A stretch of 64,000 bases of DNA from Membranipora membranacea (Eukaryota > Bryozoa > Gymnolaemata > Cheilostomatida > Membraniporidae): the NCBI GenBank assembly GCA_914767715.1, contig OU612066.1, positions 26,324,283 through 26,388,282 on the forward strand, in the 5' to 3' direction. Below the pieces are notes generated by a model. That model saw only the letters and a list, made by a program, of their open reading frames with translations. It searched no databases and was not told the DNA's origin. A program made the position numbers and the translations under genes. This document shows, piece after piece, positions 3,401-38,000 of this stretch (position 1 is the first letter of the stretch; each line of letters opens with the position of its first letter).

Positions 3401-4452
3401 GAACACATTGTTATGAAGGCAATACTGCTGCCAACTTCAATATCAGAGCTGTCGACGTGAATTAATCTCTGTGAGTTTTTTCCTTTTAGGTGCAGCAAAG
3501 AAGCACTAAGCAGATCAACAAGACTGAAACATTCGGGACATATCATACGATTGAGCTGAAACTTTCCCTGCATGACTATATATTGTCTGCAATGTCCTGT
3601 TTAGTGATATTAGTCTACATCACGTATTTGGTTATCAAAAAGAGAAACATGCTTCGCCTACCCGATCAAATGATGATTTTCCTACTCCTCAGCCTACTTG
3701 GAGCTCTTCTATGTTTCACAACCATCACGGTTCCAGTTGGCAGTGATGCTATTGGATGTACCGTTGTTGCAGCAATGACACAATATTTCTTCTTATGCTC
3801 CCTGACATGGAGTAACGCCATTGCAATCAGCATACTACGCAGCATTACAATAATGAGACTAGTAAACCACACTAAATCAAAGGGGATACTATTATATGCT
3901 CTGTATGCTTTTGGCACACCTTTGGTCTTAACTTTCATTACATATGGATTGTCCAGAGCAGAGAATGTTCCAGAATTCGGTTCACCTGTCTATAGAATGA
4001 ATGGAATTTGCTTTCTGGATGAAGTTATCACTTTCTATTCGTTATTTCTAGTCCCAATCTATATTCTAACCGTTATGAATTTAATTGTAGGCATTATTGC
4101 AATGGTTAAAGTATCAAAGAGTGGTAATATAGGCTCCAGTTTGGATAAAAACCGACTTGCCAAGACTATTATTACTTGCTTCAAGATTACGATTTGCCTT
4201 GGACTTGGTTGGGTTCTTTTAATTTTTGCTAGATTTCACAATGGCCTTTGGGTCATTGTCCAAGTATTTGTTGAGTTACAGGGTGTGCTCATTGTTTTAG
4301 CTAACATCATTGGATGGAAGTGCCTAAGGCCTGCAAAGAGGATTGGTTTCCAGTCGGTCAGTAGGAAAGTTAAAATTAAAAATAGCCCCCAAAGTGGCGC
4401 TCAAAGTCATGAAAGCTCTTCTGAAAACCAAACTGTTGACTCAGAAATCTAA
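433..4452 (+). CDS. Class-B/Methuselah-like GPCR with cysteine-rich ectodomain (5' end not found)
   Basis: This spliced gene encodes a seven-pass receptor at the cell surface; its ligand is unknown. Proposed exons are 433-681, 2446-3456 and 3501-4452, all in one frame with GT-AG introns. The first exon encodes a somatomedin-B-like knot (CDKRCHIIGDCC). The second is a large ectodomain with many N-x-S/T sites and a YYCAIC motif common in invertebrate orphan receptors of this type. The third holds seven hydrophobic segments. TM1 begins near LHDYILS, a cysteine precedes TM3 (IGCTVV), another lies in extracellular loop 2 (GICFLDE), and the tail is short and polar, ending at TAA 4450-4452. No signal-peptide exon was found upstream, so the gene is 5' partial here. 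The acceptor at 3501 is inferred: the stronger-looking one at 3490 breaks frame. Confidence 0.75.
682..2445 (+). other. GPCR intron 1
   Basis: The intron begins GTATGT at 682 and ends TTTGAAG at 2445; joining the flanking exons keeps frame (phase 2). Several short open frames lie inside, one (about 1868-2239) with a local cysteine cluster, but none has convincing splice sites or family features. I see no repeat or RNA gene here. Confidence 0.6.
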
Positions 4453-12200: not shown

Positions 12201-13270
12201 ATCTCTCCTCTATTATCTTCCATCAGAGCTTCCTTCATAGCATTGATTCTATCTGTCTGTAAAAAATTAGATTTTTTTTTCTCAACCTATTATTTTTACT
12301 AAATTTCTCCCCTTTATATGAAGCTTCAAATCGCATGATCTGTTTGAATGAAACAGAAACAGTGAGAGGTTCAAAAAGTCTAAATGAGCTAGGCATTATC
12401 AGAGTATTCATGCATTGAAATTCTTGAGAAAATTTTACGTGTGGTGATACCTTTAGATTTAGAGTAGGTCTGATGTACTTCTGATCAAAGTTCTTCTCCC
12501 ATTGTTGTCGGGTCGCAATAGTGTCCAAAATTTGGTCAGCCCTGGGATTCCCTACACCTGCAATACAAAAAAATCATCACTCTTGAATAGCAATAATGCG
12601 CATATTTTTATATTTTTCTTATAAATATGATATGGACACTAAGAAGTTCTGAGGAGCCTGCTTCAGATCAGGATGTTGTAAAGAAATGCATAGAATTCCT
12701 TTTTCCAAAACACAATCACTCAACATCGATTTAAGAAAACAATGAAACAACTCCAAGCCATTTAAGTGAAAATCAGGGGTAGGCCTGCTCAGGTGTGATG
12801 CAGTACAAGCCAGAAAAACTGCCATTTCTAATTATTATCTAACAGGGATCCATTCATTAGTAAGTGTGGAGAATTTCAGCCTTTACAGTGATTAAAATAT
12901 ATTTAACTAGGAGTTTATTAGGCCTCTACAGCACAGTCAATAGCATATGATTAATAACTTGAGATATCCATGGTTTCACACAGAGCAGCTTCAAATGTCG
13001 CATAATTACAGCAATACTATAGTTGCCTGACCATAAAATGAATTAGTCTGTGGGTTTGAGAAGTCCTTGCACTGACTCCCACATTAACATGAAAAAGTTA
13101 TTTGTTTTGCTAACTTACTTTTAGCCATGTTGTTGATGATATCATGTATAAGTAGAAGACAATCATCAGCATTCTCACTGCAGCACTGAGAAATATGCTT
13201 CAAGTCCATCTGTATGTGTTTATCTATAAACGATCCGACCACATTATCTCCTGGCGGAGGTGGCTGTATC
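9203..13270 (-). other. RNF213: RNF213 C-terminal domain exons
   Basis: Clear exons lie at about 13.10-13.27, 12.44-12.55, 12.07-12.25, 11.62-11.85, 11.18-11.33, 10.66-10.93, 10.13-10.41 kb, 9581-9768 and 9203-9380. They encode the conserved helical C-terminal domain with [43 protein letters not shown] and a final TWSHLWQRC before the TAG stop. Order and content match vertebrate RNF213 from end to end, so the gene is not truncated at its 3' end. Confidence 0.88.
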
Positions 13271-16200
13271 ATCTGCTCAACCTGTAAACAACGAAAATGA
13301 ACACTTGCGGTTGAAAAAGAAACATGTGATCCAAACGGTAAAATATCGTAGTGATTTCACAGCATTTAGTCACCACAGATGACTATTTATATTGGTTATC
13401 AATTTGGGCAGTGGCTAAGTCAGAGGATAAGGCATAGAGAGGCATAGCAAGAAAAACAACTAACTTGAAGTTCACCACGAAAATAAGAGTTTTTCTTTAT
13501 ACCAAAATTGGTTCTTGTAGGTGTTTTGTGTAGTTAACAAAATACTGTGTGCTATTTCTTTGCTGTGCTATTCAAATTAATCACCAATCAATTCGTTCTT
13601 GCAAATATAAAGAATGAAAAATGAATTATTTTCACTCAATAAGTATTGTCTTCTCTTACTTTATTAAACCAATCATTGTTATGAATAGTCAATCTAAAAG
13701 CATGTTACTCACTGCACACTTGTTGAAGAGGAATGATGTATACATAGCCAGGTGAGTGAGTAGTCTGAGAATAGCACATGACAGTGAGCTTAGTTCTCGT
13801 TCAGGTAGCGGTCCTTCTCTAGTAGAGTGAGCTCCTAGTATGTGGGCTTGCTTACTCTTCATTGCACTACAGATAATCAAATGGTTTTGCGGTTGGGGGA
13901 GGTGAGCAGTTGATGGCTTGAGCTCATGTATGACATAGTAAAGCGGTGGCCAGAATTGATCATAAAGAATTAGATATTAAACTATGAACTTATCCTGAAA
14001 TTATGAACTACAATATCTAGTATTTCGTTGTTGATTTGGCTTGGATTGCTTGGTTGGCATTTTTATGACCTTTCACATCATTCTTGCTACCCACTTACAA
14101 AAAATGAAATTCATATCAGGGTCTACTGCTTTGCAAACATAACAAAAAACATGATGTAAAAATGTATGGGAATAACATTACTGACCTGTCACCTTGAGTA
14201 TTTGTCTGTGCATACTGGCTGTCTTGTCCAGTGCTACTGAAATACTCATAATTATTGTCAGGCATTGTTGGAAAGAAATGAATCTGCAAAGAGAGAAAAA
14301 TTGAAATCCTAAATTGGAAGAACAATTAATGGATAATATAGACCAGGTACAGCAGAGATTAACAATTCTTTTTAGCAGGTTATACAAAGATGATATTATC
14401 ATTATAACCGATCCAAAAATTGTCATAGTTTCGAGGCTTCCACAGAGTTTGCCACCCACCTCTATCATAAAAGTGAAGCATTACATGATACTGGAATAAG
14501 AGGTATAGCCTGGTTAGTAATGTAATAACATCTTACTGCAGAATTCTGAGGGTCATTGATGATCTCAGCGAGTGGATACAGATCACCTTTTGTCTCATCC
14601 CCTGACAGACATTTGTACATGTGAAGAACTAACATAGACAGGTTCACTCCTCGTGATTGTACTAAGTTCATCTCCTCATTTAGAGTGTCTCTCAGCAGAA
14701 AATCAAGCAACTCCTGAAAAATTTGATTCAGTAAATTAAGCAGTGAATCACACCTTATAATCATTCAGGATTATTCATCTTGGGTCTAATCCATTGTTAG
14801 TATGTTGCTTGGTGCAGATAATGTTTTCTGCTTCAGCAGGCAGCCTGAGCAACGCTCAACGGTGATTGCTTTTCCATATTATTAAATTATTACGATTAGA
14901 TAATTTGGTGTATGGTTTTTCTTTTATTCTCATCAATGTCCTTTTTTGAGTGGTCAAAGTGGGGAATTTAAAAAAAACGCAGATTATTAATTGCATCTTC
15001 CTTGAAAGGAAAATGACTTACGATTTTTTGGCTACCGAGGTTTCGAATGAGGTTGCTCCTGATTGCATCCCTGATTTCTCTGTGCACGGGAGAATTAGAG
15101 ACCATTGTACGAGTTACTGTTGTAAAGACACCCCACAGTAGTATATGATCCGTAGTCTACAACATTCAGAAAGATTAACAGCAGTAAACTTAGGAATGCT
15201 GGATTATTGATGTTGTGGATTAAATTATCCCAGACCTTCTCATCCTTAAATTTCGAAAGACATGTGGAGGATGTAATCAAAGTTTAGTAATGTTTTCTGA
15301 TTCATTTGAAACTCCAAGCTAACATTGTGTTGGGTGAACCAGTGCACATACCTGTCCCTTGATCTCCTCCAGGGCTTCAGAGAACCTGTCCCTCTTTGCA
15401 AAGTGAACAAAACTGTTCTCTAGTGACTGTTTGACTTTCTTGTATGATTCCCCTCCAAAAAAGGACAATGTATCTGCGACAGCAAAGTCCTCAAGAGCTC
15501 TTGTGATGTTAGATGGTATAAGGTAGTTGTAGGGGGAGTTGATAAGGTCTTTGACATAGCAAAGACCTCCCTGAGATAGTAACTGTCTCACCACAAAGAA
15601 ACTAAAAACAAAAGGCAAATCTAGCCTATTTAAGAGAAGGCCCTAGTAATAATTGGAATCAGCGGCTATTGGACAAGCTGACGAGGCAGAATATGGTGCG
15701 AAATGAGAAACCTCTCAAACCGCAAAATTTATTTCAAAGGAAATTTGATTGAGGAGTGCATACTTGATTTGGAGAGTTCCTGATCGATTGGCTTCCAGTA
15801 GGAAGTTGCGGAATTTCTGCTCCAGTCTTTGAGACGCCATCTTACTTTGAAGTATGGCTTCAACTGTTTTGCCAATGATAACCTGAAAATCATAAGTTAG
15901 TAAAAACACTTGAGATATTAACACATTCAAGTGTTCGACACAAACAAGAAGAACATGGACTTGGTGAATTTGGGCTGATTAGAATTCACCCACTATGGTA
16001 TAGCGACCTTGTCATAGGACATAGGGGAGCTATTACTGTATGATATTTGCTGTAGGCAAAAATATTGCTCAATACTCAGGTTCAATTTTTACCTGAACAT
16101 CAGCTAGTTGAGTGAGTAACTCTACTGGTAGATCAGTGACTTCTTCAGTTATGAGCTGTAATGTGTTTGGATCTGATATCACATGGAGTAGCTGACCAGT

Positions 16201-19200
16201 AGTCTGTGAGGATGGATGTAAGTCCTGTAATTATAATATCAGTTAGGTCCCATTCCAGACTTGTGTAGGAGTTGACTGTGTTGGTTGAATAACTTGAATT
16301 CTCCAAGGTTCTGACAACTGGTCTTCATTTGATACAACTGAATGGCCTTGGAGTTTTCAACAATAGTTTAGTCTGCTTATCAACGGAGCATTCTATTAAC
16401 ATGGGATATATGACATTTGATACACAATATGGCAAATAAAGTGCAACAAATCTCATTGCGTTAAATTGACAGTGTGACATACCTTGTGACAGTTCATGAA
16501 GAGTACCATGGTCTGAACCTGAAGATTAGGCAGTTCTGTCCATGAGGTGAGCATGTCATTGAGAGTATCAATTACGGACTCACTCTGCTCACATCTTAGC
16601 AATAACTTCAGTAGGAATGACCTTCAATAACCAGACCCAGAATCAAGATTGATCAGAGTGGCCAGTGCTGGAGTCGTCCCATATACTGGTATTGTCGAGG
16701 AAATGACAGGAATGCAACAGAAATCCAGCCGCCAGTGATTCAGTTAATAGTCAATGATATATGTATTGAAACAAGAAGCATTTCAGCATCATAATTGCTT
16801 TTATCAAAATACAAAGATGGACTGGACGTTGACTAAGAGTAGGAGGTGGCTCCATTGGTTAGAGCGCCGGTCCTTCAGCATGAAAGTGATGAAGGTTGTG
16901 GGTTTGAATCCCACTGCAGTCCATCGACTAGTGGGGTTTGGTTGGCCCCCAGGTGTGCTCCGACCTGCCTGCAAGCAGAGAGCAACCTGGCGCAGACATT
17001 GCGGCCTAGCCCATAAGGCAATCAATATGTTGCTGCCCATGCTCTGGGATGTGGCGTGTGATATGATATCTGATTTTAATCATCCTTTAAATCAACCTAT
17101 TTATTCAGAGGAAAAACCTACCTAAGAACAGGGCTGGGATCTACAACTTCTTGGGAGTTGAACAGACTGAGTTGTCTTGTAGTTTTATCTGAGGTAATGC
17201 GTTTGAGTAACCAGTTCATTATCTCGTCTGCAGGCTGTGACTCTGAACTAAATACTACATCCGAGATAAAGTGCATGAAGAAGGTATTGATGCGAGCTCT
17301 GAAACTCTTGAATGAGTCCATCCTCTGTTTCCTATACAACACAGACAAATAAAAGTGTAAGAGCATGACTCATATCAGTATCGCTGTTCACATCAATATA
17401 ATGCATTTCGAATTTATTAATTAGCCTCTTTGAAGGTTGAAGCAAAGACGCTGTTAGAGTATATAATATACATATGTTTTATGAATAAAAATATATTGAT
17501 AAAAAGTCAAATATTGATAACTAGGGAAATATTGAGACGAGTGAACGAAATCTCACTCTATATGGTCAGCCGCAAGTTCTATGATAGATTCCTTGTTGAT
17601 CTCTTTACCACAGTTCTCTTGTGCGCAGAATGTTACCTCCTGTACGCAAGAGTAACACATGATGTGATCACACTTCAACCTTACAGGGGAGTCGATCACT
17701 TCCTCACAGTAGAAGCACTTCTTTGGGCATTTTCTGCAATGGTATACAAAAGTAACTGATGGCCAGACATGAGACAATGAATATTAGAAAAATCAAATAT
17801 GATTTCATAACATGCAAATATTGAAACCTAACTTCTAAGCTCATGAGATTTCGTATCAGATATCTGTCCTATTACTAGTCCTAATTTTTGTTATACGGGT
17901 TATGATGAAATGCCACTCAAGCCATTCAGGGGCATATTGTAACTTAATATACATGTAGTAGAGAAAAAAATTTTGAATTTATTTTTTTTAATATTTTACG
18001 GGAGAAGGTTTCCCTGTTCGCAGTTTTTTAGGGCTCCCTCTGGTGCAATAGACATGAGCAAGCTATAGACCTAGAGAGAAGGCTGAGTAGAGATAATTGG
18101 AAAAAAGGTTGGATGACAATATTCACGTCTAAAAACTAGTGTCATTTCCTATTTCTAGCCTTAGTGCAGCATTAAGGATTAGTTTTTGAGAGTAGAACTC
18201 ACGGGTATAGAGCTCTCAGTTCATCCGACACTGTCCTACGTAGAAACTTAACTAACTGTTCAAATGCTTCATATGTACTGAAATCAGTCTCTGTCATCTC
18301 CTGTAGAATGGAGGGATATGAATGTAATATGGAGTAGTATGTGTAGCATTGTTGAAGGGGTGTGGATGAGTAATGGTTATGTCATCATCAACATCATCAT
18401 CAACAACAGTGTTCAGGGTTACGGTTAAAATCGCTGGTGCAATAAACCTTGTGTATTTATCCACCATTTATAACCAACGTATTCAGCTCACTTTTTTAGC
18501 CATCACTGATCTCAGTCCAATCGAATATGCAAAATAAACTTTCCTTTTCAATTGACAATCTACAGTATTAAGTCGATAAACAACTGATCGTTGTGTTTAG
18601 GTTCATTTCTGTCATTACGCAGGTGAATTCGGTTGGGCACTTGCCATAATTTGATCACTTACTGTAATAAGAGTTTTGAGGTTGAAGTTCTGTTTAGTTT
18701 GCCTTTCATGGTTCATTGGTATGATCACATGTTCTACATACAGCTTCTCAACTTCTAGCTGTTCCCACATATCACTGAACATAGAAAATATGGCTGAGTT
18801 ATTTTACATGAAGTAGTCTTAAGACAGCCCAGTCCCCCCTTGACTCTATGTGATGACAGTGAAATTGCAAATTGCCTTTAAATTTGCAGGGTGCACCCTT
18901 CTTCTCAGGCTTCAAGGCTAGCTATAAGATAACATCGGAAGTGGAATCCAACAACTATACGACAGAAACATTAACTTATTGCCTCCATAACATATACAGG
19001 GATCAGAAGAGGATAGTTTAACAGTAGCAATATAAGAGTACTTTTTGCAAGAAAAATGTGTTTTGATAGTTTTCGATTTTCAGTTCAAACTCACTAGCAG
19101 TTTTCGATGATAGCAGAGTCAATATCATAATCATCAGCATCCATGATCATATCATACACAGTTTTACACCTCTCTACCAGATTGACCCATCCAGCAGGAT

Positions 19201-22200
19201 CCTTCATAACGTCAGGTATCTTAATCTCCTTCACTAGGGTCAGTAAGATGTCCAACACCACCACATCTGATCTCTGTAAAATGAAGAGGAATGAAACAGG
19301 TAAAACAATATCCAAAACAAAAGATATCAGGTATGGACAAGAGACACAATCCACAGAAATAGTAAGTACCTTAGAGGATAATAGGTAGCATTTAGCGTTA
19401 AATATTTTGATCAACATAAAAGAAACGGCCTGAAATGCAGAACGGCCTGTTGACATGATGAATCTATCTAATATCATCAAATAAATGAACACTTTAATAA
19501 TAAATCAATCATATGGCTAATCAAAGGTAGATAAAATGACAAAGTTTCTAAACGAAATTCCCATTGAATTTATGTCAGGCTCTTGCAAGGCATGCTTGAG
19601 CCTAAGCATTGTCTAACTGACCTCTTCAGATTTCTCCACCTGTCTCCTGATCCTCTCAGCGATTCCTTCACCAGGAGCTTCAGATATTAGATGATAAGCT
19701 GCAGAGAGCCTTTGCATCATTTCTCTCTGCTTCTTATAGGCTATGTGAATGTGTACCATTGATGGGTCTTCGATTTCCATCTCATTCTTGATAAATGCCA
19801 TTATGTTCATGCCAACCAGCTAAAACCGAGAGTTTTGATGTAAAAGGCGTTAGAGGTTGACAGAAAAAATTATTCATATGAATGCATTGTTGTATAATCA
19901 TAACGGGTAATCATAGCAAGTAACAAAGTACTGCTACATTGAGCCATCTTCTCCAAAAGTTAAGTGTTAACAACTGTTTCAAGTTTTCAGGTGATTCTAG
20001 TCAGTACCTGGTGTTCTGCCTTGTTAGAGCAGGGATGAGACATATAGATGAAGTCAATCAGATAAGGCTCCAGCATACGAGGTCTAAGTTTGATATAGCT
20101 TGGATCATATATCACCTTACTGATGGTAGAAAGTTTGAACTGCTCTACAAGGTTGTCTGCCAAATGAAGGGGAAAAATCTAAGGCAATGTGAAAATATGA
20201 ATCTAAAGTCAAAAAAGATCACATAGTAGATGTATTTTTTTAAATATTTGTAGTTCCATAAACCATGAGGCTCGAAATCTGTCTTCAATATAGAAGTTGT
20301 AACAAAACCATGTTTTTGGCACAATTCCAGAGTCCTCAGTCTAATTTAGAATACAGCTCTATGTTCATTAACAGCGTCTGGTCCAGATTCACCTGACTTT
20401 CTATCGAAGTTTAGATAAGCAGTTCCCTTTGAGTGACCCGGGAATGGTGGCTAAACCCTGGTTCCATCAATTTCAGCTATCAATAAAATACCCTTTAAGT
20501 TAGATCACTCACCAATGTTGAGTTCATGCTGAGGTTCGTTGACTGCTATACATCTATCTATAGTCTGCTTGACAATCCATGAAAATGGGAACTGTGTCTC
20601 AAACATCTGCCTTCCAGAACCAAATTCCTGAATCTTGTATCGGTTTGGTAGTTTCTACGATTCAATAAAGAGATGAGAATAAAGTATAATGATTTATCAT
20701 AGTGTGACTGTTAGAACCAACTTTATCAGTGACCCTCGAATAAAGCAGAAAGCAATTCTTCGACTGTCACCACTTCCCTGTGTTCAATGCTAGATATAAA
20801 CAAGTCTCATTGGTTAGGCAATATTAACGATGATTAACTAATGCACTTACATTCTTCGATAGGCCGGACAGTGGATTGCTCACTAGGGATGGGTTATCCT
20901 CCATTATGCAAATGCAGAAAACAACTTTCTGAACATTTGCAGCAGTTCACTTACCGCGCCTTGCTGTCCAGCAGTTAGCTTGCTGTACGTCAGCCCAAGT
21001 TTATCACCTTCACTAAACAGCTGTAACCAGAGTCTGTTTAATATTCCAGGAGATTTGATCATCTGTATGTTTCCTCGTACATCGATAAAGGATATGACTG
21101 CTGCCAGGCCGGGTACAAAGGCTCTCTCCAGTGAGTCCTCCAGGGCATGTCTGTAGAACAATAGTAGCTTGTTAAACTTGACAATAATTTCCAAACTGAA
21201 TGGTAAGTGATGGGTTCTATGGTAATTCGAAAGTTGTGGGAATCACTATGTCATCAGACACATTAAATGTGCATCCTCGGACAGTAGTCCTGCATAGTCT
21301 TAGATGGCCAAGTATGAGCAAAAATGTATCAAACCAAATCTAGTGATAAAACAATATTCACCTGAGTGTTTCTGACTGTTTCATGTTGCTAGCTTTGGCT
21401 GCATCAGTTTTCACCCACGATTCCAAGGAAGAATCATACTGCCTCTTAAGCAGATCTCTCACATGTATAAGGAATATCTTTGAGAAGTCTACAGTGATAC
21501 AAGAATTTGAATGAACTCAACCATCTAAAGCTGAGCTTACACAGAGGAAACTGGCAACTGGAAACTTGCAACCTGGAAACTTTGAAATACTTCTGGAAAA
21601 TCGAATCGGAAGTAAGATGCCTATGCTTGAGAATCAAATTGATTGACGGCGGCCATGTTAGAGTGAACAAATTCGTTGCTGGTTGGTGGTAAAAATCGAT
21701 TACAAATTCAAGTCTGACTCTCCAAGACACACCTTTGTTTTCGGAGAGTAGTTTCTTGAGAAGGTCCACGCGATCATAATGCTGATCAGTAGTAATAATG
21801 GACACAGCAGCAGGCAGGCATTTGATGATAAAGCTTTTGAGGCCATCAAATTCATTTCCCTCGTCAACATCCTCTTTTTCAATTGACGTTGCCGTAGCAG
21901 TAAGTTCGCCGACATCACCTTCCAGACGGGATATGAGCTTATCGATGATCTGATCTGGTTTGTATTTCATACAGGAGCTGAGTGAAGGAAGGCGGATCTC
22001 TGGTGTACGGGGATCATCTATGTGCACACAACGCCACTTGCCACCTAGAAATCAGACACACAGCAAGTCAATTGTTTTATTGTATGTGTTCCATGCATAT
22101 TTTAAGATGGAACAATAATGTCACTTAACCTAGCTGCCAAAATACTAACCTTGATATCCGGTGAACTTATGACCTCTTGGTAGGTTGAGTAGGAGTACAG

Positions 22201-25200
22201 TATGAGATTTTGTATTAGCTTCATCACTCTGGTGTTCTATTATATATCTGACTGAATCTAACAGTTCAGTATTCTCATGAGCAAGCTCACATTGTAACAG
22301 TATCATCCGTGTAACATCAGTCTGCTCGTCGTAGCAACTCCTGAATATATTAGTATTAAAATTTGAAGAACAGGAAGAACTTAATTTATGCAGGACTGCC
22401 ACCATTAAATTTGATGAGCATAAAACTGTTGGCTGTAAGGGCCAAGTTAGATCAAAAACATGCTATAACATTTCCAATTAAGTTGATAGACTTCACTCCC
22501 TTCTATCCCAATATTGCTGCAAATATTATGGCTATGATGTGACCAAGGAGTTAGAGACTTTATCTCCTTGATGTGACAATTCTTAGATTGCAATCTCAAT
22601 TGATTATCTTCTAGATAAAGTATAGAATACGAAGATCACTTCGTCACTCTGAAAAACATGACGATTTGCCGAACAGCCTTTTACAGTAGGTTTCCTTTTA
22701 AAAAAATGATTCAAATGCGTTGTCTCCTTTTCCACATGGCCTTATTTATCCCCTTACATTCGGTTGTGGCCATAAAGTAAAATATTATATATATATCTAT
22801 ATCCCAGGAAAAGAAATACGGTATCATGAAAGTCTGGTTTTGGTTACAGTGCTTAAAATCTGATTTGCATTTGTGAACAATCGCTACAGAAACATACCTG
22901 ATCTTCTCAGTAAACTGAGCCTCCTTAAGGAACTCTCTGAGATAAAGGTTCTGAATCTGAACTCTGTGTCCGCATGTCTGTCCCATCATGTCCTCAAGCT
23001 TATGTTTGTCGTGTTCTGTCATCAGTTTGGCAAAAGTTGTCACCTATGGAATATAAACATTAAACTTTTTGAGGTCGAAAAAACATATTTTACTGCATCA
23101 GTGACTTTTCTTGTGTTTTTCTTAATGATGTAGCCAGCGATGTGTCCAATTGTTTCACCTGGATATATAGAGGTTGGTCTGCATCACTGAGAGCGTGATG
23201 TAGGTACTCATGTAGATTCTCATGGTTCTGTTTCCTCATGTATATATCCTGTATCTTGTCTGCTTCACACTCAAGGTCAGTCTTGTCGAGACGGAGGACT
23301 GCTTCTCCTGTGGCACATTGTAGCAGTAAGAACTTAGCTTGCTCAAACACCTGTGAAAAAACGAAATGTAGCTAAACAACTTTCAGTAGGCTCTGTAAAA
23401 TGACATGAGCGATGGTTTTGGAGGCAAATACTTGCAATCACTCGGCTGACAACATGATTATAATTTCCAAGCATAGACTGAATGGCCCGAAAAGGGGAAC
23501 AGCGCTTAACTCGTTCGAAACAGGGAATTCATCGCTCTAATTTATAGAGTGGACAGGGATTACTAAATTACTAACCTGAGCCCAGAACCCCTCATCATAT
23601 TTATTCTCCATCATGTCCTCCGTAGCCTGTCTGACTGTTAGTGCTGTTGTCTCACTACTGTAACCTATGAAAGCTGTCTCTACTTTAGAGTTCTCAAAAT
23701 ACTGTCTGAAAATATCATATAAACAAAAACTAAGTCAAATAATAATGATGCATGCTTTAAAAGCAGAGACATTGAATTTTTCAAATCTTCATACAACACT
23801 GCAGTTTAAGGTTATAGTTTATATCGAGATTATCGGAAGTTATATCAAAAAGGTAGCTTTTGCAGATAATGAACTTACAACGCTGTGGTATATATTTTAA
23901 AGGTACAGTTTGCTATTTACATAGCCAAAGTGACACACAAAATTTATAGAAAAGGTTAAAACAGTTCGAATAGGATGAGTAACGTTAAATTGAATTCAAA
24001 TGTAACCTGCTAGTCTGAAAACTTTCATAAGTACTCTTTTATGCCAGTACAAAGCAAAAAACTTGTGGAGAAGAATTACATGTTACAGTATTAGGTATAA
24101 GTATCTCAACCAAGCACAAGAATAAAAAATTGTACTGATGATGTCACCTGTTTTCCAGAGCTTTTACAGCCACCTTCCATTCACGTTCCATGGGTATTTC
24201 TTCAGGGCTACAGTCTTCATCAGGACAACGTCTAGGTATATCACCTCTAAACATGGCGTCTTGGCAGCATGGCCCAATAAAGTGTGTCATACAGGGCAAC
24301 TGATATGGCTGATCGAGAGACTTTCCACATCTGTGACATTCAGATGGGCATACTTGCCTGTGATATAACCATAACATAATTTTTAGCACAGCAAATGGAG
24401 CACCAATAGCCTAGGCATGCTTTCTGGGGTGGTTGGGGGGGATATCCTTGGTCAATATGTCGTGACCCCTACAAGGTCGCACAGGATTCATAATTAAAAG
24501 CCACCTACCACGAAAAACTTGAACCGTATGAGCAAGATACAAAAGTATCTTTGCAAGTTCAACCAAAGAGTAGTCTATGGTTTGACTTTTTGATTATTGA
24601 TTAAATCGGACAACTCTCATTTTAATCCGAACACACAACTATTACAATTTCTTTGCGTGTCGTCCTCTATTGTAAAATTGATTGACCCAGCCCGTCCCCC
24701 TCCCCCAACAGACCACAGACAGCCTGCACAGGTTAGAGCACCAGCCAACAAGATATCTAAGACGTTTTAGGTTTTTATCAAACAGATTACTTATAGTTGA
24801 TATAGGATCATAAGAAAGAGATTATTTACAGTGGATCATAGGGCCAAACAATTAATAATATACATTGATCAGGCATTGGTGTATCAAAAATTAAACCGCT
24901 TCCAAACCGGACCGCAGAGTCTAGAACTTTATTGTCAAAAGTTTGGTAGGCAAGTCTTGTTAGTATTGTATCATTTATTAATCATCCATCTCCTTGGCAT
25001 TTCGTTGTAGTGTGATCAATGTGTTGTAATGTTATGGATCAATGTGAGCACTTACTTGAACTCAAACTGAGGTCTGACAAATTTCTCTGCCCAAGCTTCA
25101 AGCTTCTGTTTGATACCTTTCTGGTTGGTATCAAGTAGAGAGGTAGCTGATATGTAGTGTTTCTCCAGTCTGTTTATCAGTGGTATGGGGAACTGAGAAT

Positions 25201-28200
25201 GTACTTTGTTCTTATCTGCTATCACTACGAGCCTGACAAAGCAAAATTCATATTTGACAGAGATTCGAGAATCAGGTATCAGATTTATTGCCAGCAGATT
25301 GAAATATTCTAACTAGTTGTCTGTCTTCAGAATGTATCCTCAAGGTGCAGCTGCAGCAGGAGAAGTTTGAACTAATAGTGGTACAAACATCAATGACTCT
25401 TTGCAAAAGAGCTCAAAATTACTACGTAGATGTTGTCTCCTTACTAACCTGAATCTGTCATCAACAAATGCTTTCACTCTGTGAGTACCTAGACCAAGAT
25501 CCACAAACTTTCTGTCACCCCAGGTAGAGAAGTATTGATTCAGAGCATCATACATGCTCTCATAGAGATCATCCAGGTTCAGTAGAATCACAGGACGTCC
25601 CATGTCCATACATGTCTTTATTCTGTAGATGTTGTGGCACACCTGCACAATTGAACCATTTCAAAACAAATGTCACTGAAATTATCTGCATTGAAGATAG
25701 GGTTTATGGACATACAGTGCGCACAGTATCATCACAAACAAAATTACTAGGCCAACTTACCTTTCATCAAGGTAAAGAAGAGTGAATATAGAAAGCATTA
25801 ATTACAGGACACTAAATAAACTTTCCAGGTATTTACCTGTGTGTAGGAGTTGTCGTCTTTGAAGCGACTACCAAACACTACCATCGGTCTGTGCTTCTGT
25901 TTCCTGCCAAACTCATCTAATATGATACTAAGTACACTGAGACTTTCCACCAGGATCAACAGATACCTGCTCTCAGTTCTGCAATTTGAGATGTAACTAT
26001 TGTGAAAGCATATGAATGGTTACAGGCAAAACAGAAAATACATCCTTTAAGAGTAAGTGCTGTTTTCAATGCAAGAGCAAAAGATGAATATTATAAACAC
26101 AAATCTGAGTTTGAGTCAATCCAAGCGTAGTTGAAGGTCAGAAATGGACAGAATCTATGGTTTTTCTCAAAAAACATGACAGAAACAATTGCCACATTAT
26201 CACAGTCAAACTAACCCAGTGCCAATAGTCTGTGGTGAGTCGTCAGTCATCTCACCACCATCTGCAGCATCCATAATCTCCTGGCTTGTTGACACAGACA
26301 TCAGCTCTGTTATCTTCTGTTGTTCGGGTACATCATCCAACCTTCCCATGGTGTCTCCGGAGAGACTGGTCTTGATCAGACCCATTGAGTCAGTTGGTGG
26401 CCATTTGTCAGTACTAGGAGCCAAACGTTCAAACTTGTCCCTGCAGTGGCGAGTGAAAACTTTCATCGGGTCAAACTTCTCAGGATCGAAACCTCCGAAG
26501 TTGCGCCTGATAGAGTGCTCCAACTGATCTCTATTCAAACCTTCGTGTTCGTCTATATCAGCAAAGTTCACCACCATCTTCATCAAACTAAGGAGTAGAG
26601 ATTTTCTTGAGATACTAGTACCAGGTGATCTACGGCCTTTGAGACTGCCTCATCCGGCTAGATACTCAAAATGAGAGACTGACGAGGGAAACTTGAATAT
26701 AAACTTCGACAAGGGATTTGTGCAATGGAATGAAATTGCCATATTGTCTGTATCACATTTTAATGTTTTTATTCAAGACTTTTCACTTGATTGGCCAAAC
26801 AGCATGAAACAAAAACATCGAGATACATAGTATGATAGTTTGTGGTGTACCTGTAGAAATCACGGAGACCAAAGAACTCAGTAAGATCTCTCTCCTCTGA
26901 TTTCTGTTCTGTACAGATCTCCAGATATCCTTTGGCCAATGGGCTTATGAAGTGTTGTACATTTGATGACGACTTCTTACATATCTCACTGTAAAATGAA
27001 AATCAGCCACATGATGGGAATTTATTATTTTTTACTGCCATTGGGGAAGTGCAGTGACTTCAGAAATAACACCTCACAAATTCCCAACAGCGATTCGTTT
27101 CCTGCAAGTTTGAATGCAATCATAAGTTGAAGTGTAAAAACGAAACAACAATTGTACTATTGTAGTATGATACTGCATCATGACTTTGTTGGCCTTGACA
27201 TTGTGAAGACTTAGTGTTTAGAGTCTGCACTGAAAAACTGAGAAGTGAGGAGCTGTCCCATGACCAATGTTTTGCCAAAAGACATCCATATCTGTTATCA
27301 TAGACGGGATAAACATAATTAAATCTTCAAATCTCTTGTGAAAGGGTACTCTAAATAGAATTACAGTGCTAGTTATTCCACTGGCAGAATAGATCAGCTA
27401 ACTGTTCTTGATATCAATAAGAAATTTGATGATTGAAACATGCGCATACTAGGCTATTTGTTCCAGTTCTTTGTCTTGTGGTGTTCCTCTCTGTACAAAG
27501 ATACCACGGTTCATCTTAGCCGGATCCAGCGCCCAGTTAGAGATTCCTATGAATGCACATTTCATCCACGGCTCTGGTTTTGTGTTTCCTTCACAACCAT
27601 CCTCCAACAGTGGATGTAAAGTCTGAAATATATAGTATACCCTGGTAAACATCTAATGTTGTAAACAGTTGGGAGTGGTCTAGTGCTATGAGAAGAGAAA
27701 GATTAAGAGTATTCGCTCAACTGGTGATTTGTGTCATCAACCCTTCAGTGTTTAATAACTGTGAGAAGGCGCCCTCTGTTAGTGTGGTTGTACTCCAAAC
27801 AGGCTGCTATTACCACAGTCCCGTAAATGAAAGATTGTCCAGTCTCTAGCAGGTCCAAGAGTTTTAATTTCAAGGGGAGGAGTAAATATTTGTGGGTCAA
27901 AGATGGTTCTTCAAAAAGAATCTACATAATTTGAACATTCTTTGCCACATTTTGATATGACAAGCCTTGTTTGGCTGTTCCGTTTTGTTTTGGGTCTTTA
28001 GTTGTTTTTATCGACTTGTATGTGGTGTTAAAAAACAATCTAACAGCACCAGGATCTCAAGAGAAAGATATAAAGTAATCACAAACAAATCAGCGTATGT
28101 TTTGTGAACAAATCTGTGTACAAAATACTTGTTTTAAACACAAACCTTTAGAGGCATATTCTCAGAATCCTCAGCTAATCCGACTTCATCAAGCACTACG

Positions 28201-31200
28201 ACGGAGACAAAGGTTTCAAGGTCTAGCTTTTTCTGGAAATTTGCACACTGGTTGAACACGCCTACAATACCTGCAGGTGTAGCGTGTCGACTACACTGGA
28301 AAGACACCATGTATGTCTGCAACAGAATATTGCCTGTTATCTAAACCCTGTGACTGAAGAAATTCGAGCTGTTTCTGACTCAATATAATCTTACAAAAAT
28401 TGTTATTTATACGATCTGATTCAAATTGGAGCAATACATTGACAAGATAGAGATGCTTTTCATGCTATACCTGGGTCAAATCCCATATTTCTTTCAAACC
28501 ACTTGGAATGATGGGGTCCAAAAAGTAAAAAGATATTTCTGTTGGCAACAGTGAACACTGACCTGTTTCATTCTCTTGAAGAAATCACTCTTTGAAGCAG
28601 TTCCTTTCATAGCTTCCATGATCATTGCTTTAGACAGGGATTTAGAGCTGCCTGGTTTTCCCACAAGGAAAAGGGGAATCCTGTTCTCAATACAGACGAT
28701 CATCATGAATACGTTCTCTTTCAGAGCTCTGTTCTTAGCTATGTTCTTATGCAAATCTTCGTCTATGACCTCATTCACAAACAAATCCTGGCAGCTTCAG
28801 ATTAAAGAAGAAACAGAAATTTAGTTTCATCCCACACTTTGAATAAGAAACCTGCAGTAAAATTACAGCCATCTATTCAAAGATAATAATATGTTTGTCC
28901 TGCGCTTTGCTATTCAGTTCTGATCACATGAGGACCACATCAATACTTTGTAGTGAGCACTGGCTTTGACTCTGCATGAAATTGTTCTCACAATATAAAC
29001 AGATATTGGCGAGGAAATTCATCTGACGATGAGAGCATGCATTAATTCTGCTGCAAAGAAAACGAGTATACAGAAGGTCCTTTAGTACACTGAACACCTG
29101 AAGCACACACATTTATTGTTTCTTGTAATGCAACACTTCTAAAATGGGGCAACAAGGATCCCAGGTTGAAAAACAATGTTCTGCAAACTCTTGTGTTTGT
29201 GTTATTCTGTTCTTGTGATGACTTACAACTCAAGTTGATCGATGAGAAATTGTCTTCCATCTTTCTTGCCATCCCTTCCATACTCTGTCGAGAATATCAT
29301 CCTCTGAAGCTTACTACCAACAAATGTCAGGAAATCGTCTCTTGTCTTGTCTTCTAGCCTGGCTAGGTAACAGACTCCCATAGCAAGAGCCAAGCAACGT
29401 GCACAGTATTCTTTCTGTAAACAAAACATGAGCAGTCTGTTAGGTAGGCTATAACAGTTACTAGCCATCACCTGAATATTTTGACAGGTCAGCCAAATCG
29501 AACAAGCTGAGGCAGGAGGCAATCCAAACTTTCAATAAGGCAAGCATCAAGATTAACACTTATTCTAAATTATAGATCAACCAGTGACACGAACAAAACT
29601 GTTAGCCCGTTTTGGCAACGACATATTATTGAGAATGATGTGAGCATATTCTTCATATTGATTTCTCTGGTTGGTAAAAATAAATTGCAGCGGAAAGAGA
29701 AAATAATCACCTTATAATCTTTCTGAGGTCTGCCGTCTGTCAGAGTAGGTGTAGAGTCGTCCTTGAGTTCAGTCATTGGCTGGTAAGAATCAAGATGTTC
29801 ATTTGGGTTTTCTTTCTTTCTCTTTAGCTCATCCATGGCAGGGAACAGGTGTTCCCGTTGTGTGTAGAACCAGTTAGCTACATCCAGTAGTCTCTGAATA
29901 TCTCGGAGGCTCACAAAACTACACTCATCCTATGGATAGTACAGGCTATTGATTCAAACAATATTTCAATGAAATGGTAAAAAATGATGCACTATTATCT
30001 CGATTTGGTTGACTTTTATAAAACTGAGTCATTTTCTCATGGGAACACTCACAATCACATGTTGCAGTCCATGTAAATCAGAAGCCATTGGATCCACAAA
30101 GCAAGTTAACATGCTCTTATCTATACAAAATATAAACCACTAAAGAAATTACAATTTTTCAAAGTGTACTTTTGCCATTTGAGCGAACCCTTATCAATGC
30201 ATACAAACCGTTGCTAGAAGAGCCAGCCTCTGCATTGGCATGTCATACATATGAGAAAATGAGATACAGTGAGGCAGTTCAAATGAGAAGTATATAGCCT
30301 GCCTCGACAAGCTGTGTTGGTTAGTTGGGGATGGAGTGAAAAGGTAGCAAAGCTTGTCAAAGACTGTTTAGTGATTACCTTTTGGTTTCTCATGAAGCTT
30401 TGAGTAAGAGCAAGTATCTCAGCAACTCTAGAGGTGTGATGCGCAAAATGTATTCCTTCTGTCGCCCTATTATCTTGATTCTGTAGACAAAGAAACTGTA
30501 TGTAAACAATCTTTCAACACCGAACATGAGTTTAATTTTCTATCTGGCTAGGGACAGAAGGTCTAAAGGAACATGAGCAAATATAACAGCATTATCCTGA
30601 TATTTATCAGAGTAACTCACAGATTTGATTAGCATCTGTTTGATATAGTCACTTTCTCCTCCTGATTTGGGGATATTGTTCTCAATTTTAGTGTCGAGTG
30701 TCTTCAAGGTACCGAAATCCCAGACCAGAGGCAGTAAGCTCTGAGGTAGAGGCTGTACACGGTATACCAAGTGTCTCATCGGGATTTGCCCTATGGATAG
30801 GAGGAATGTAAAAATCTGACGTAAAATACATGGTTGCGAGCTTCGATCAACAATTTCAGGATCTCATACATCATATCTTATACAATAATTCTAAATCAAT
30901 CTAAACAAGACTTCCTCAGCAGTGAAAAGGTAGGCAGTTCAACACTTCCCATCAGTAACATTTGAAAATAACATACCGAATTTATCTTTGGTGTCTTTCT
31001 CGCTGACGTTATAACCGAGTCCAGCTTTCTTCAGTTTCTCAATCATGGCAGGAGTGTGGCTATACAGAACAATAAATATCATACATGTACACATGTACAT
31101 GAAAACAACATGGTTTGTCTTTCAAATCAGTCTCCTTTCACCTGTTGCCATAACGATTCCTTTCAAATTCTTGAGTAAACTAAGGGGTACTTTTTATTAT

Positions 31201-34200
31201 GCAATGTTCATCATTTTCCATTGGATGATCAAGGATTGAGATTTAAACTTGATTTTCCTGCAACTATATGCCTGATGCATGTGTAGAAATGTTGCTACAA
31301 GTCTTATTTTAGATGAGGCAAAAATTAACTGTTAGGATATCTGCTCTACCTTCTGTAAGGATTACAGGCGGCGATGATTTTAACTCCTGACTTTGGATCC
31401 AGAGGCTCCCCTCTCATCCTACCATCACAAAGAATCTCCTTCACTAATCCGATAGCTTCTGTTGTGTTTGCCTCATCCAAGAATAGGAGAGTGTATACAG
31501 ATGGCTCCTGAAAAAAACATTATCAAATAAAAGGAGTGTGCATTCTGTATGCCCAGTTCCTACCAATCAATAGACAGTTTTCTGAGCTCTTATTTATGCC
31601 TCAATCCGGAGTTGTCCTCTCTCCAGTTTGGTACTTTTAACCCACGCCGCATAGGAAAAACCTGCTGAAAGAGGGTTATCTTGAAAACCGCTTATGTTAG
31701 GTAAAAATGAATTTTGATTCAGAGTCTGCACCATTGAAAACCCTGTGAGAAAGTCATTGGAGGCTTAAATGTTGAAAAATCTTAATTTTAGTGACGAAAC
31801 TCATGAAAAATTCTGCCAAATTGTCCGCAAAACAGGCAGAAAATGCTATAATTGACTATCCAATTACTAAAATTATTTTCCAAACTATTGCCATATGAGT
31901 TTTCAATGCTGCAGATTCTGAATCAAAAATAATTTTTATCCTATTATAAACGGTTTTCAAGATAGCCCTCTTTTCAGAAAGTTTTTCCTATGCAGCGTGG
32001 GTTAAAAGTACCAAACTGGAGAGAGGACAACTCCGAATTGAGGCCTAAATCAGAGCTCAGAAAACTGTCTATTGCCATTACAATAATAATGGTAACCTTT
32101 GTCAAGTCTTCTAAGTAGTTTGGAAAGGGAATTCACAGGCAGGCCGCTGCAGCACTTTTGCACTCACCAACATTGATCCATGTTTTTCTGCCCATTCCTG
32201 ACAGGCAGATTTGTTTTTGACTGATTGTCTCTGAGCCTCGCGTACCATCTCTATGATATCATTCTCTGTTGTGCCACCATGGATCTGTCAAAATAGTAAT
32301 ATAATCCAGCATCATGTGAGTGAGGGACCCTGAGTGAGTTGTTGGCCAACCTTCAGAGATTTCTTAAGGTTTAATGCAAGCTGCAGCGGTTCAGGTGAAG
32401 ACAAGATATCTCTGATTGACAACTGGCCTGATATCACAATGACTTAGAAACTATGTTTGGAGTGCAATGTAAAAGGCAGGAATAACTTTGATAGGATGCT
32501 ACGGTGCAAAATTAACCATGCGAAGACTGCTGACAACAAATTGGCATTTCTTCCTCAAAAGAGAAAAGTGTCAACACTTTGGATGTCAGCTACCTTTCTT
32601 TCGATCACCAGTTTTGTGTTAAAACCAAAACCTCTGTTGGGATACCATGGGACAGTCTATACATGTGCACATATAATTTCCAGTTGGATTTCATTGCATC
32701 ATACCTTAACAATGATCATGGTAGTGAGTTCTGCTCTGAGATCTGTAGGCGTTTGTAGTTTAGACATGAACTCTATCAGCTTAGTTTTGCCACAGCCTGT
32801 CTCACCCATAATAATCACTGGAATGTTCACTCTAAAGGGAGTTCATAAGAAAAGACAGTCAACTGATTTCAAAGGAATAATTCTCTCAGGTAATTTCGAT
32901 TAATGATCCTAGACTAAGACTGAACCGAAGATACAAATGCAGCCCTTTGCCGCATTGCATCTAGTGATAGCTAGCTCCTCACTATGGCTATGGAGTTCAT
33001 TCCTAAATGCTGTTTTACTTTCAAACAAAAAACAGTACCTGTTCAAGTTTGCCAGGAGTAGAAATTTTGACAGGCTTACCTCAACCTCTGATGTATCGCT
33101 AGCAGTTTCTTAGCGTTATCCATAGTGAGTACATAGTTAGGGTCAGGATCGTCTCCCTGAGCGAACATCTGTACTTTGGTCTTATATCCGCCAAGTGATG
33201 ATGTTGTAAACAGCTGAATATCTCTCACTACTATACTACGCAACTTCTGTAACTTAGCTTGTCTGAAATACAGCCCAGGGCATAGAATGGAAATTATTAG
33301 AGAACTGGAAGGATAATGAGCTATGGAGATTTTGATAAAGTGTATGTTTGCTCCTGAATGGACATCTAAGTCACTGGTATGATGAACTCACAATCATAGC
33401 ACTTGCAATGAACTTTCACATGTGATGTCCACCTCAGATTTACTCACTGTAACATAATAATACTGTATGACTCAGCAATAGAGCTAGCTGACAATTGAGC
33501 CTAAGGCTAGGGAAGCAGTTGTTTTAGTCAGATTACACCATTTTGCTTTGCTCGACAGGCAGTGTACAACACTGATATTCGGCTCAACTAACAAACAAGG
33601 GGATCTGTCTCAATCGGATACACCTACCGTTCAAGCTTATCAAAGTTTTCTGAGAGTTTGATGTCAGTTTGATCCAGGGCTCTCCTAAGTTCTCTGCTGA
33701 TAGCTTTTGGCACTAGAACTTCATCAGTATTACAATCCACCAGGTCAGACGGCTTAGCCACTAAAAGCAAAGTTACACAGATATTACTCCCTCCTTGCTT
33801 ATGTCATACCACAGAATAACCTATTGCAAAACATTCTGGTATCTCCTTAGTGGTGAGATCAATATAAACATAGTTTGATCTATCAGAGAATTTCATGCTT
33901 GAGCTTAATGGTGGTTAGGGTGTGAAAATGAACATCAGAAAGTACTATCTATTTTTCACATTTCTCTTATCTACACTAAATAAGGTAAATAACGTAGTAG
34001 TGTTCCTTGGAATAAAAACATCTTTGCAGATTAATCACGCATTTCTTGACAATTATTCAGAGTCATTAACAATATTTGTGGGCACAGCTCCATGAGTATG
34101 GTTTTTGAAACATTATTTCAGTTGCAGTCTTATACATTGATATATCATTCATATCAATGGTCTTATATATCTATTACATACAAGAGTCAGTTTTGACAGT

Positions 34201-34982
34201 GAATCCGAGCGGTGTCACGGAAACCCCATCTTCGTTAAAGAATAGATAAGGATTGTTGACACTTTCCCAAGTTCTCTTCAACTCGAGTTGTGCTAATAGA
34301 TCACCCTCATCTCCTGTCTCAGACTGAAATTCAGAAACATGCAAGGTCATATAAAGCAAAAATTTGGTTGCAAAATTCATATGTATATGTGTGAATCAAT
34401 TTGGCACAAAATAAATTATAATCCTATGAAAGGGTTTCAGGTAGGTTACATTGGACCAAGCCTACCTCTAAATTAGCTCCTGGTGTCTCTTCAGCTATTT
34501 TCAGTGATCGGGTTGCAAAATCCTACAAAATTATTATTACTGTTATCATCAGTGTGATCCATGACTCACTGCGACTTAATGTAACAATGGATAACACAAA
34601 CGCTTATAATATCTGATAACATATTATGTGAAGTTTGATTTAACTTCCCGATTAGACCATGCAGCAATAATTTCAAACACTGTATTACTAGTGACACACA
34701 AAAGACTTAAGACTTAATCGATTTACAAACCCCAGCCATCCTGAACATGAATGTAGTGACAAATTTCCTGAATCCTGGGAGATCAACAGCGCTATCAGGC
34801 CATGTGTATGGTGAGTTCTGTATCTTAAGTAGCTGGTTACTCAGGAAGTAAACATAGTGTCTCAACTCACTCCATGAGGGTTTTTTCAATCCGCAATAAC
34901 TGTGATAACAAAGTATATCGTATACATATACGTATACGTATACACATATGTATACGTATACGTATACATATACATTTACATT

Positions 34983-35063
<81 letters not shown>

Positions 35064-38000
35064 TACATATTGTATACACGAATAGATGCAGATTAAGAAA
35101 AATGCGCTGATTTTGATGAAAGATACACAGGACAGGTAGGGAGTTCAAGTCACTGAGGCCAACACCTTCTGTAATATTTCTAAACTCACTGTCACATAGT
35201 CCTGCAAACAGGGTAGTTTGATTTAAAAGTATTTTATTGAACATAAATCGATGAATAGAGGTCGATAAAATCAAGCTATAATTTGAAAGGAAAGTCAGAA
35301 TATATTCTGCTTGATAAATGTTGACATGTGACTTGGGGTCAAACCAGATCAAGATAGATCTATTTTGCCTAAGTTCCAATTTGATCCCTTCCCACTGGGT
35401 CACGCTGCTGTGGAGGGGGAGCAACTCCAAATCTAGGCAAAACAACCAAAGTTGGTCTGGGGTCAAACATTCTTTACTAACTACTTTATACTTACTCAAT
35501 CAACAGTGTGAGGGCCTGTTCTGGATTGTCAAAATCTGGCTCTTCCCAGTTGGGCTTCCGTTCACCTTTCTCCTCTATGAAACAGCCGTGCCTTGTAGGG
35601 TACTCCAGGCTATTGCTGTCTCTATTATGGAGGAACTTGATTGCAACCTGCCATTCCAATTCATGAAGCACTCGCTGATCAAAACCAATAAACTGATCTG
35701 AAAAATACAAAGCATTTAATTATGGCATATGAATTGAATGTGACTTTCTAATTTTTCTCCAGTATGGAACAGCCAAGGCAATAGAGTCACATCAGAATCA
35801 TTTAACACATATTCATGAGATACTTAACAAACCTTCAGAGACTCCTTGTTTGTATTTTTGAAGCGCCTCCTCAGGTGTTATACAGGGGATTGTGGGTAGT
35901 AAGTCCAGCACTTCATGGGCACTACTTCTATCCTGTAAGCGAAATAATTCCATTAGATGAGTGGTGTGCATACTACTGTAGTCTTATTTAGTAACGTAAA
36001 GGCATCAATTCCTGTCTGGTGGGGATAGGCCTGTTCAATAAGCCAATTAAGATTTGATCGTTCGACAATTTGTCAGTCATGTTGCGCATCTATGTCAGAA
36101 TCATTTATGGAGTTTAAAAAAACTATGCAGCTGGAGTTCAAAAGTTTAGTCACTAATTTGAACAAGCAAGAGATCCTTGGCTCATTTCCAATGTCTAATA
36201 AAGGGTTTTACCCTGGTTTTCTTTCTGCTGACTAAACCTCGATACTCAGCGCATCATCAACCAACTCAAAGATCACCACCTCTCACAAATCACACACCCC
36301 TTACATTCAGACAACTCCCATATTCACAGCTATACTGACAAGTTGCTGTTAGGAACATCATGAAACTGACATCAAGGATGTGATCTATCAGTATTAATCA
36401 TTAATTCCAAGAGGTATTTGAGCTGAGTTGAGGAATATGGTTGATATTCACCTGTTGTAATGGTCATATACAACATCAAATACCACCTCTCCCGCAACTA
36501 AAACAAGACAGGACAACCTCCACACAATGTCGATCATTTGTAAGTCAATTTACAGCACATACCTTGCTCTTTGAGTAAGGCATACACTCGATGATATAAT
36601 ACTGTGTATGTTGAGCCTGCCACACAGCACCACCTGAGTTCACTATACTACCAAGTATGATCAGATTGAACAGAAAGTTGTCTACTCCGTGTTCTACTTC
36701 ATGGGCGATATCCAGATGTATGGTATGATGGGCATGTTCCTTATTGTAGCCATTGCCTAAAGAATAGTTTATTTAAGAGCACGCAGCATAAATTACCTTC
36801 CTACACACCTTTCTGGGATTCATTAGCCAAGGTGCAGGCTCTGATTGGTGGGTGGGGGGACAACCATCATACATATACATATTAGCTATTTATATCGGGA
36901 GATAAAAGCAAAAAACATGATGTCACCAAACCTGAAATCTCATCATGAATTTCATATCAGAGTTGTTTTCTCAGCTTTGCGAGTTGACCCCTCTTGCAAG
37001 AGAATTTCTCAAGTTTAAAACACAATGTCACACATCACCAGTACACTATCTTCATGTACATTTGGCAATAAAAAGCATTGTCAGAACAATGGGATTGCAG
37101 AGTAGTAGCAGCACACTTACCTAACTTTTTAGAGAGTATATCAATGATGGTATCAGTACTGATAGATTTGTACACAGGTATAGTGAGATCTTCGCCAGTA
37201 CGGATATTGAGATTATCTCTCAGGTTCTGTACGAGATTGTCTCTCTGCAGTGACTTGCCTACACCAGCTCTCTGAGAGCGAATCAGTCTGGCATTTGTTC
37301 TACAAGAGAAACAAGCTCACAGTTTTAACTTGTGGTTATAAAGTGAAATGAAGTATTCTGAAGTTTTTATTTTTAATTTTGACTTACCATTTAAGTGGAC
37401 AAGAAGAAGGTGATTGATACAGCTCATTAACACACGAATATGGATGCTGACTCCCGTTGTCTGCATTTAGGCAGGAGAGCCTCAATTAATGATGCTATTG
37501 GTAACTGATACCGATTTATACCTGTGAGCGGCACATAGACCAACACAGAACAAAGTGCTGCATGTTCTGTGTATGGTCATGATGCTGATTGGCTGATGTT
37601 GGTGAATTGACACTAACCTGTGAGGGTCAGTGATACAGGCTGATTCAGTGACAGTATCAGGTACTTTCAGCATCTGTAGTACATATTCTCTTATCCTTTC
37701 TTCTGCTGCTAACTCTGTATGCTTCACCAGATATTTGTCTAGATATGCTCTGATTCTAGACTCTTTAACCTCCTCCTGTACAACATAATTGTCAGTGATC
37801 AAAATTCAGTAGTCATAAGCAGGTTGGTGAAAACTGAAGGATTAAATTAGAAAGTCAAATCTTAATCAGATGCTTTCAACCAAAATACATATTATCAATC
37901 ATCGGACATCACATGTTCCCCTGATAATGCAATGTGAAGAAAACAAGCAATGGTAGCCCAATTATTACTGTTAGCATCAGACGACCATTTTTCAACTCAG

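What the first reader, a model, noticed from the sequence alone, without database searches (positions are those of the whole stretch)
24148..24357. RING-encoding exon apparently duplicated within RNF213, giving a second RING-like domain in the hinge
The exon at 24148-24357 and the true RING exon at 17557-17733 are both single, phase 2-2 exons, and both joins of each keep frame. Each begins with CP-x2-C-x2-C and continues D-x-P-x2-L-x-C before a histidine and a final C-x4-C pair. In vertebrate RNF213 no zinc finger occurs between the LINRLEKHY helix and the FIGYHSD segment. A symmetric exon can be copied into an intron of the same phase without breaking the frame, so exon duplication is the simplest account. 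The result would be an E3 with a zinc domain at the junction of the AAA motor and the E3 shell.
Basis: partly seen in the sequence, partly recalled or inferred. Interest (0 to 1): 0.82.

Follow-up and report, generated by a model that had tools for sequence, protein, structure and literature searches.

The report
Bryozoan RNF213 with extra RING-like domain
In the moss animals (bryozoans) sampled here, the giant immune protein RNF213 carries an extra zinc-finger-like domain in its motor part, probably an old and much-changed copy of its own RING domain, which offers a natural experiment on how this protein works.

Summary
Exon 24357-24148 (minus strand, 210 nt, phase 2-2) lies in an RNF213 gene that groups with bryozoan genes and encodes a Cys/His-rich insert. 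All 5 bryozoan homologues found (Bugula 2, Watersipora 3) have it; none of 187 other RNF213 proteins does. Its profile matches RINGs in the PDB and, of five RNF213 RING sets tried, bryozoan RINGs best: score 57.0, others 33-46, at most 41.2 in 200 shuffles keeping Cys/His/Pro columns. A low-to-middling model from finger rows alone gives RING/U-box hits. Fingers and bryozoan RINGs share a CP-x2-C start (6 of 6, 4 of 4), found in 0 of 146 other RNF213 RINGs. RING origin is well supported. Copying from RNF213's own RING is likely but unproven; trees do not settle it. Two corrections: the insert lies in AAA5 of the motor core, not the hinge domain (inferred from published landmarks), and it is no standard RING, lacking ligand C5 and the hydrophobic E2-contact residue. 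In passing: this gene seems to lack the catalytic RZ finger.

The parts
24148..24357 (-). Exon coding the RING-like finger inserted in AAA5 (69 aa)
17557..17733 (-). Canonical RNF213 RING exon, phase 2-2
25056..25232 (-). Preceding exon: ...[13 protein letters not shown]... to FEFK, ends phase 2
23576..23705 (-). Following exon: [20 protein letters not shown]..., helix after the insert
24358..25055 (-). Intron before the finger exon (phase 2)
23706..24147 (-). Intron after the finger exon (phase 2)
9254..62416 (-). RNF213 gene, approximate extent of the ab initio model; the 5' half and small exons are uncertain
   Evidence: 101 predicted exons, 2 stops; many exons between about 33.8 and 9.2 kb supported by tblastn
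13713..14283 (-). Place where the RZ finger should be: exon 14283-14186 and an exon beginning at 13866 join in phase 2 without it

Best explanation
The exon encodes a divergent RING-fold zinc domain that entered RNF213 once, before the split of the bryozoan genes sampled here, most likely as a copy of the gene's own symmetric RING exon placed in a phase-2 intron. It sits in a loop between two helices of AAA5, directly after the regulatory insert IR5. It has kept most of the cross-brace core and lost features with which RINGs hold E2 enzymes, so it most likely works as a zinc-stabilised structural or docking surface on the motor ring that helps AAA state, partner or substrate binding communicate with the E3 part, not as a second ubiquitin-transferring RING. 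Shown: the exon, its presence in all 5 bryozoan homologues found, and its relatedness to RINGs. Inferred: source, zinc binding, exact location (by homology), function.
Confidence: 0.65

Rival explanations
1. The finger was captured from the RING exon of another gene by exon shuffling, not copied from RNF213's own RING.
For: Tree with fingers plus RNF168/RNF146 RINGs is 9.0 log units worse but p-AU is 0.17. The profile's best PDB hit is RNF168, ahead of RNF213 (E 0.003 against 0.007).
Against: CP-x2-C start shared with bryozoan RNF213 RINGs only; bryozoan RING is the best-scoring of five RNF213 RING sets; the best tree holding fingers and bryozoan RINGs together is 0.8 log units better than the free tree. 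Only two outside RINGs were used.
Confidence: 0.2
2. The finger is a working second RING that recruits E2, giving RNF213 two RING stations.
For: C7-P and most ligands are kept; Arg/Lys follows the last Cys in P0001 and P0003; RING fold predicted. The window gene appears to lack the catalytic RZ finger, so a RING route would matter more.
Against: C1+2 is polar or Gly in 6 of 6 fingers, C5 is replaced by Gly, the window has Ser after C8; even the canonical RING is not needed for transfer in mouse.
Confidence: 0.1
3. A zinc finger unrelated to RING that converged on a similar Cys/His spacing.
For: No Pfam RING cut-off reached; fold scores are modest.
Against: Similarity exceeds 200 of 200 and 1000 of 1000 shuffles that keep Cys/His/Pro columns; PDB profile search gives RINGs.
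Confidence: 0.03
4. The exon is optional: a frame-neutral cassette spliced in only under some conditions.
For: Phase 2-2, so skipping keeps the frame.
Against: All 5 annotated bryozoan proteins found include it, though two of the three searches used a finger-bearing query; donor and acceptor are not weak.
Confidence: 0.12

Closest known systems
RNF213 / mysterin (vertebrate)
   Same: AAA core with the [13 protein letters not shown] segment, E3 module with a RING at the same place, same order
   Different: Extra RING-like domain in AAA5; RZ finger not found in the window gene
RNF213 E3-RING
   Same: Cys/His order, LPC core, single symmetric exon in this gene; RING fold predicted
   Different: Finger has G for C5, adjacent CC at C6, C-x2-H in 3 of 6, a conserved W and AL-x-N tail
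RING domains with altered or missing E2 contacts (recalled, no call)
   Same: RING fold kept while E2-contact residues change
   Different: Those known to me lie in other proteins; none is recalled inside an AAA unit
IR3 and IR5 inserts of the RNF213 AAA core (PMC7311170, section 7)
   Same: Inserted elements in AAA units with proposed regulatory role; IR5 precedes this segment
   Different: IR3 and IR5 are called amongst the most conserved RNF213 stretches and no zinc is described in them; the finger was found in bryozoans only

Membership tests
RNF213 family | AAA core segment LVVIADK...[13 protein letters not shown] | tested here: met
RNF213 family | E3-RING several hundred residues after LINRLEK | tested here: met
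   841 residues in the window model; 634-892 in 146 other proteins
RNF213 family | RZ zinc finger (PF20173) | tested here: not met
   no six-frame match in the window (best E 2.1), while left-out controls P0002, P0188 and P0010 score 4e-27, 1e-25 and 6e-21. My RZ pattern found it in 129 of 192 proteins, so it is not universal in these (some partial) records. Filed as an RZ-less RNF213 homologue, by this window
RING domain (C3HC4) | Eight zinc ligands in RING order | tested here: not met
   C5 replaced by Gly in 6 of 6, C8 missing in P0002; extra CP Cys and CC could substitute (inferred)
RING domain (C3HC4) | Matches a curated RING profile above its cut-off | tested here: not met
   best RING E 0.062; each RING model matched one of six members
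RING domain (C3HC4) | Profile similarity to RINGs beyond the Cys/His/Pro pattern | tested here: met
RING domain (C3HC4) | RING fold | tested here: inconclusive
RING domain (C3HC4) | Binds zinc and E2 | not testable with these tools
   needs protein; E2-contact residue C1+2 is not hydrophobic
Copy of RNF213's own RING exon | Closer to bryozoan RNF213 RINGs than to other RINGs | tested here: inconclusive
   best profile score and shared CP start, but individual scores are mixed and trees unresolved

The most novel reading that the evidence does not exclude
In this bryozoan RNF213 the ubiquitin machinery has been rebuilt: the catalytic RZ finger is gone, while the RING exon was copied into the AAA5 unit, making a two-RING, RZ-less AAA machine whose motor carries its own RING-derived sensor or docking head. 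Whatever ligase or coat-forming activity it has must then run without the RZ cysteine, through RINGs or as a non-catalytic coat protein.
Probability: 0.3. Interest if true: 0.75.

Novelty: new variant of a known kind. Interest (0 to 1): 0.55.

Why it matters
RNF213 is a giant antimicrobial E3 whose RING has no known substrate (PMC11549300, passages) and an unknown role (PMC12440826, passages). A lineage that kept a RING-derived domain in the motor core, and whose members seem to vary in RING and RZ, is a natural experiment on what these parts do and how AAA state is coupled to ubiquitin transfer. It is also a likely case of a frame-neutral RING exon becoming a new domain elsewhere in the same gene.

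Tried and rejected
Hinge-domain location: rejected from the mouse landmarks in PMC7311170 (find passages and sections 6-8). Positions by homology are approximate: PDB numbering was not read directly, and the structural aligner leaves out chains over 3,000 residues. Phase coincidence as evidence for copying: weak (8 of 18 introns are phase 2, 4 of 19 exons are 2-2; read). Shared DNA between the two exons and 600 bases either side: nothing beyond chance (best E 0.24), so not recent. C-x4-C last pair as a bryozoan mark: dropped, two mussel RINGs share it. My first count of an upstream Cys (1 of 146) missed P0027 through a pattern shift; the recount is 2 of 146 with any Cys within four residues and 0 of 146 with CP. 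Tree of RING domains: too short to settle the source. Pfam and NCBIfam scans of the fingers: no useful family. tRNA scan: none. Literature: seven searches gave no report of this insert; I saw listings only, except PMC7311170 (sections 6, 7, 8 and passages), PMC11549300, PMC12440826 and PMC12075652 (passages) and one passage of PMC7534450 (RNF213 is among genes up in autozooid tissue of Bugulina). The library holds open-licence papers only. Two of three searches used a finger-bearing query, and lengths were limited, so bryozoan copies without the finger could have been missed.

Full report
What is there. The minus strand of the window holds an RNF213 gene. A splice model of 19 exons from 25978 to 17122 is open and has AG/GT at every border. 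Solved RNF213 chains match residues 1 to 52-55 of the query and stop before the insert, which begins at residue 60. The window gene groups at 100/100 with five proteins of named bryozoans: P0001 and P0188 of Bugula neritina, P0002, P0003 and P0189 of Watersipora subatra. That the window is bryozoan is inferred from this; the species is not known. Identity of the window protein to P0001 and P0002 is 51-52%, lower than the 59% between those two, which fits a lineage outside the two named species, or a paralogue.

The exon. It codes 69 residues. Six finger sequences align with 19 invariant columns, among them C3, P4, C7, C10, P17, L20, P21, C22, H25, G28, C30, C31, C44, P45 and W60. Of the 192 proteins collected, 5 are bryozoan and all 5 have it. 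Of the 187 proteins are not bryozoan and lack it: the spacing from [11 protein letters not shown] to the FIGY helix is 51-64 residues in 183 of them, against 124-127 in the three bryozoan ones; for the remaining one, P0012, the pattern failed and absence was read by eye. P0190-P0192 also lack it (read). No brachiopod or phoronid name was listed.

Where did it come from? All 6 fingers and all 4 bryozoan RINGs begin CP-x2-C-x2-C. Among the 146 other RNF213 RINGs that my pattern could find (of 187 proteins; the other 41 were not counted), 0 have CP at that place and 2 have any Cys within four residues before C1 (correcting). That points to the gene's own RING. Against it, fingers keep Pro after C7, which the bryozoan RINGs lack, so the RING would have changed after the copying. 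The RING tree leaves it open: fingers are one clade (100/99). The free tree puts them beside molluscan RNF213 RINGs with support 11/0, and bryozoan RINGs are not one clade in it. A tree with fingers and bryozoan RINGs together is 0.8 log units better than that free tree (p-AU 0.52). One with two outside RINGs is 9.0 worse but not rejected (p-AU 0.17). P0003's finger scores up to 93 with fish RNF213 RINGs against 61-80 with bryozoan ones, and P0002's up to 68 against 50-67.

Where does it sit? Mouse RNF213 has its AAA core at 1775-3405, IR5 of AAA5 at 3063-3103, the hinge domain at 3406-3588 and the RING at 3940-3999 (PMC7311170). In human chains the matched segment lies 849 residues before the RING match (3188 and 4037 in one numbering), so LINRLEK falls near mouse 3110 and the insert near 3150-3165 (inference). 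That is AAA5, roughly 250 residues before the hinge. The AF2 model of P0189 (pLDDT 67.6 overall, about 80 at the finger) places the finger between two helices.

How it may work. RINGs hold E2 through a hydrophobic residue two after C1 (recalled from the RING literature). Fingers have R, G, G, S, G, S there, while 95 of 146 other RNF213 RINGs have V or I. C5 is Gly in all six by this alignment. A Lys/Arg follows the last Cys in P0001 and P0003 but not in the window. Even the canonical RING of mouse RNF213 has Leu for the linchpin and is not needed for autoubiquitylation. I therefore favour a structural or docking domain. ATP binding in the AAA core activates the E3 (PMC12075652, start of abstract and passages), so a domain in AAA5 next to IR5 is well placed to tune that coupling (inference).

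The missing RZ finger. Exon 14283-14186 and the exon that begins at 13866 join in phase 2 ([14 protein letters not shown], compared with NDSAARSRKGHILG in P0002), and the 319 bases between them hold no RZ-like reading in any frame. An RZ profile finds nothing in six frames of the window. P0002 and P0188 keep the RZ finger, so RZ loss and finger gain are separate. P0003 lacks the canonical RING in its annotated model and scores only E 0.17 for RZ; P0001 and P0189 end before the RZ. In mouse and human the RZ cysteine is the catalytic one (PMC12075652, passages), so the window's protein may be inactive in RZ-type transfer.

Verdict. A real, conserved RING-derived insert in RNF213's AAA5, found only in bryozoans among the animals sampled; likely an own-RING copy; likely not a working RING. 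It is a new variant of a known kind.

Noticed in passing
window 13713-14283 (-): The RZ zinc finger, the catalytic part of vertebrate RNF213, appears to be absent from this gene; flanking exons are present and join in frame.
   Followed up: partly
protein P0003 (Watersipora subatra), C-terminal half: The annotated protein keeps the AAA5 finger but lacks the canonical RING and shows no clear RZ; this could be real loss or a gene-model error.
   Followed up: partly
window 50281-53519 (+): Open reading frames that look like a non-LTR retrotransposon (endonuclease and reverse transcriptase) inside the modelled gene, on the opposite strand; read by eye only.
   Followed up: no
window 2444-4449 (+): Two long open reading frames that look like a Cys-rich extracellular part and a seven-helix receptor; read by eye only.
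   Followed up: no
P0115 and P0149 (Mytilus), RING: Mussel RNF213 RINGs with a C-x4-C last pair like the bryozoan ones.
   Followed up: no
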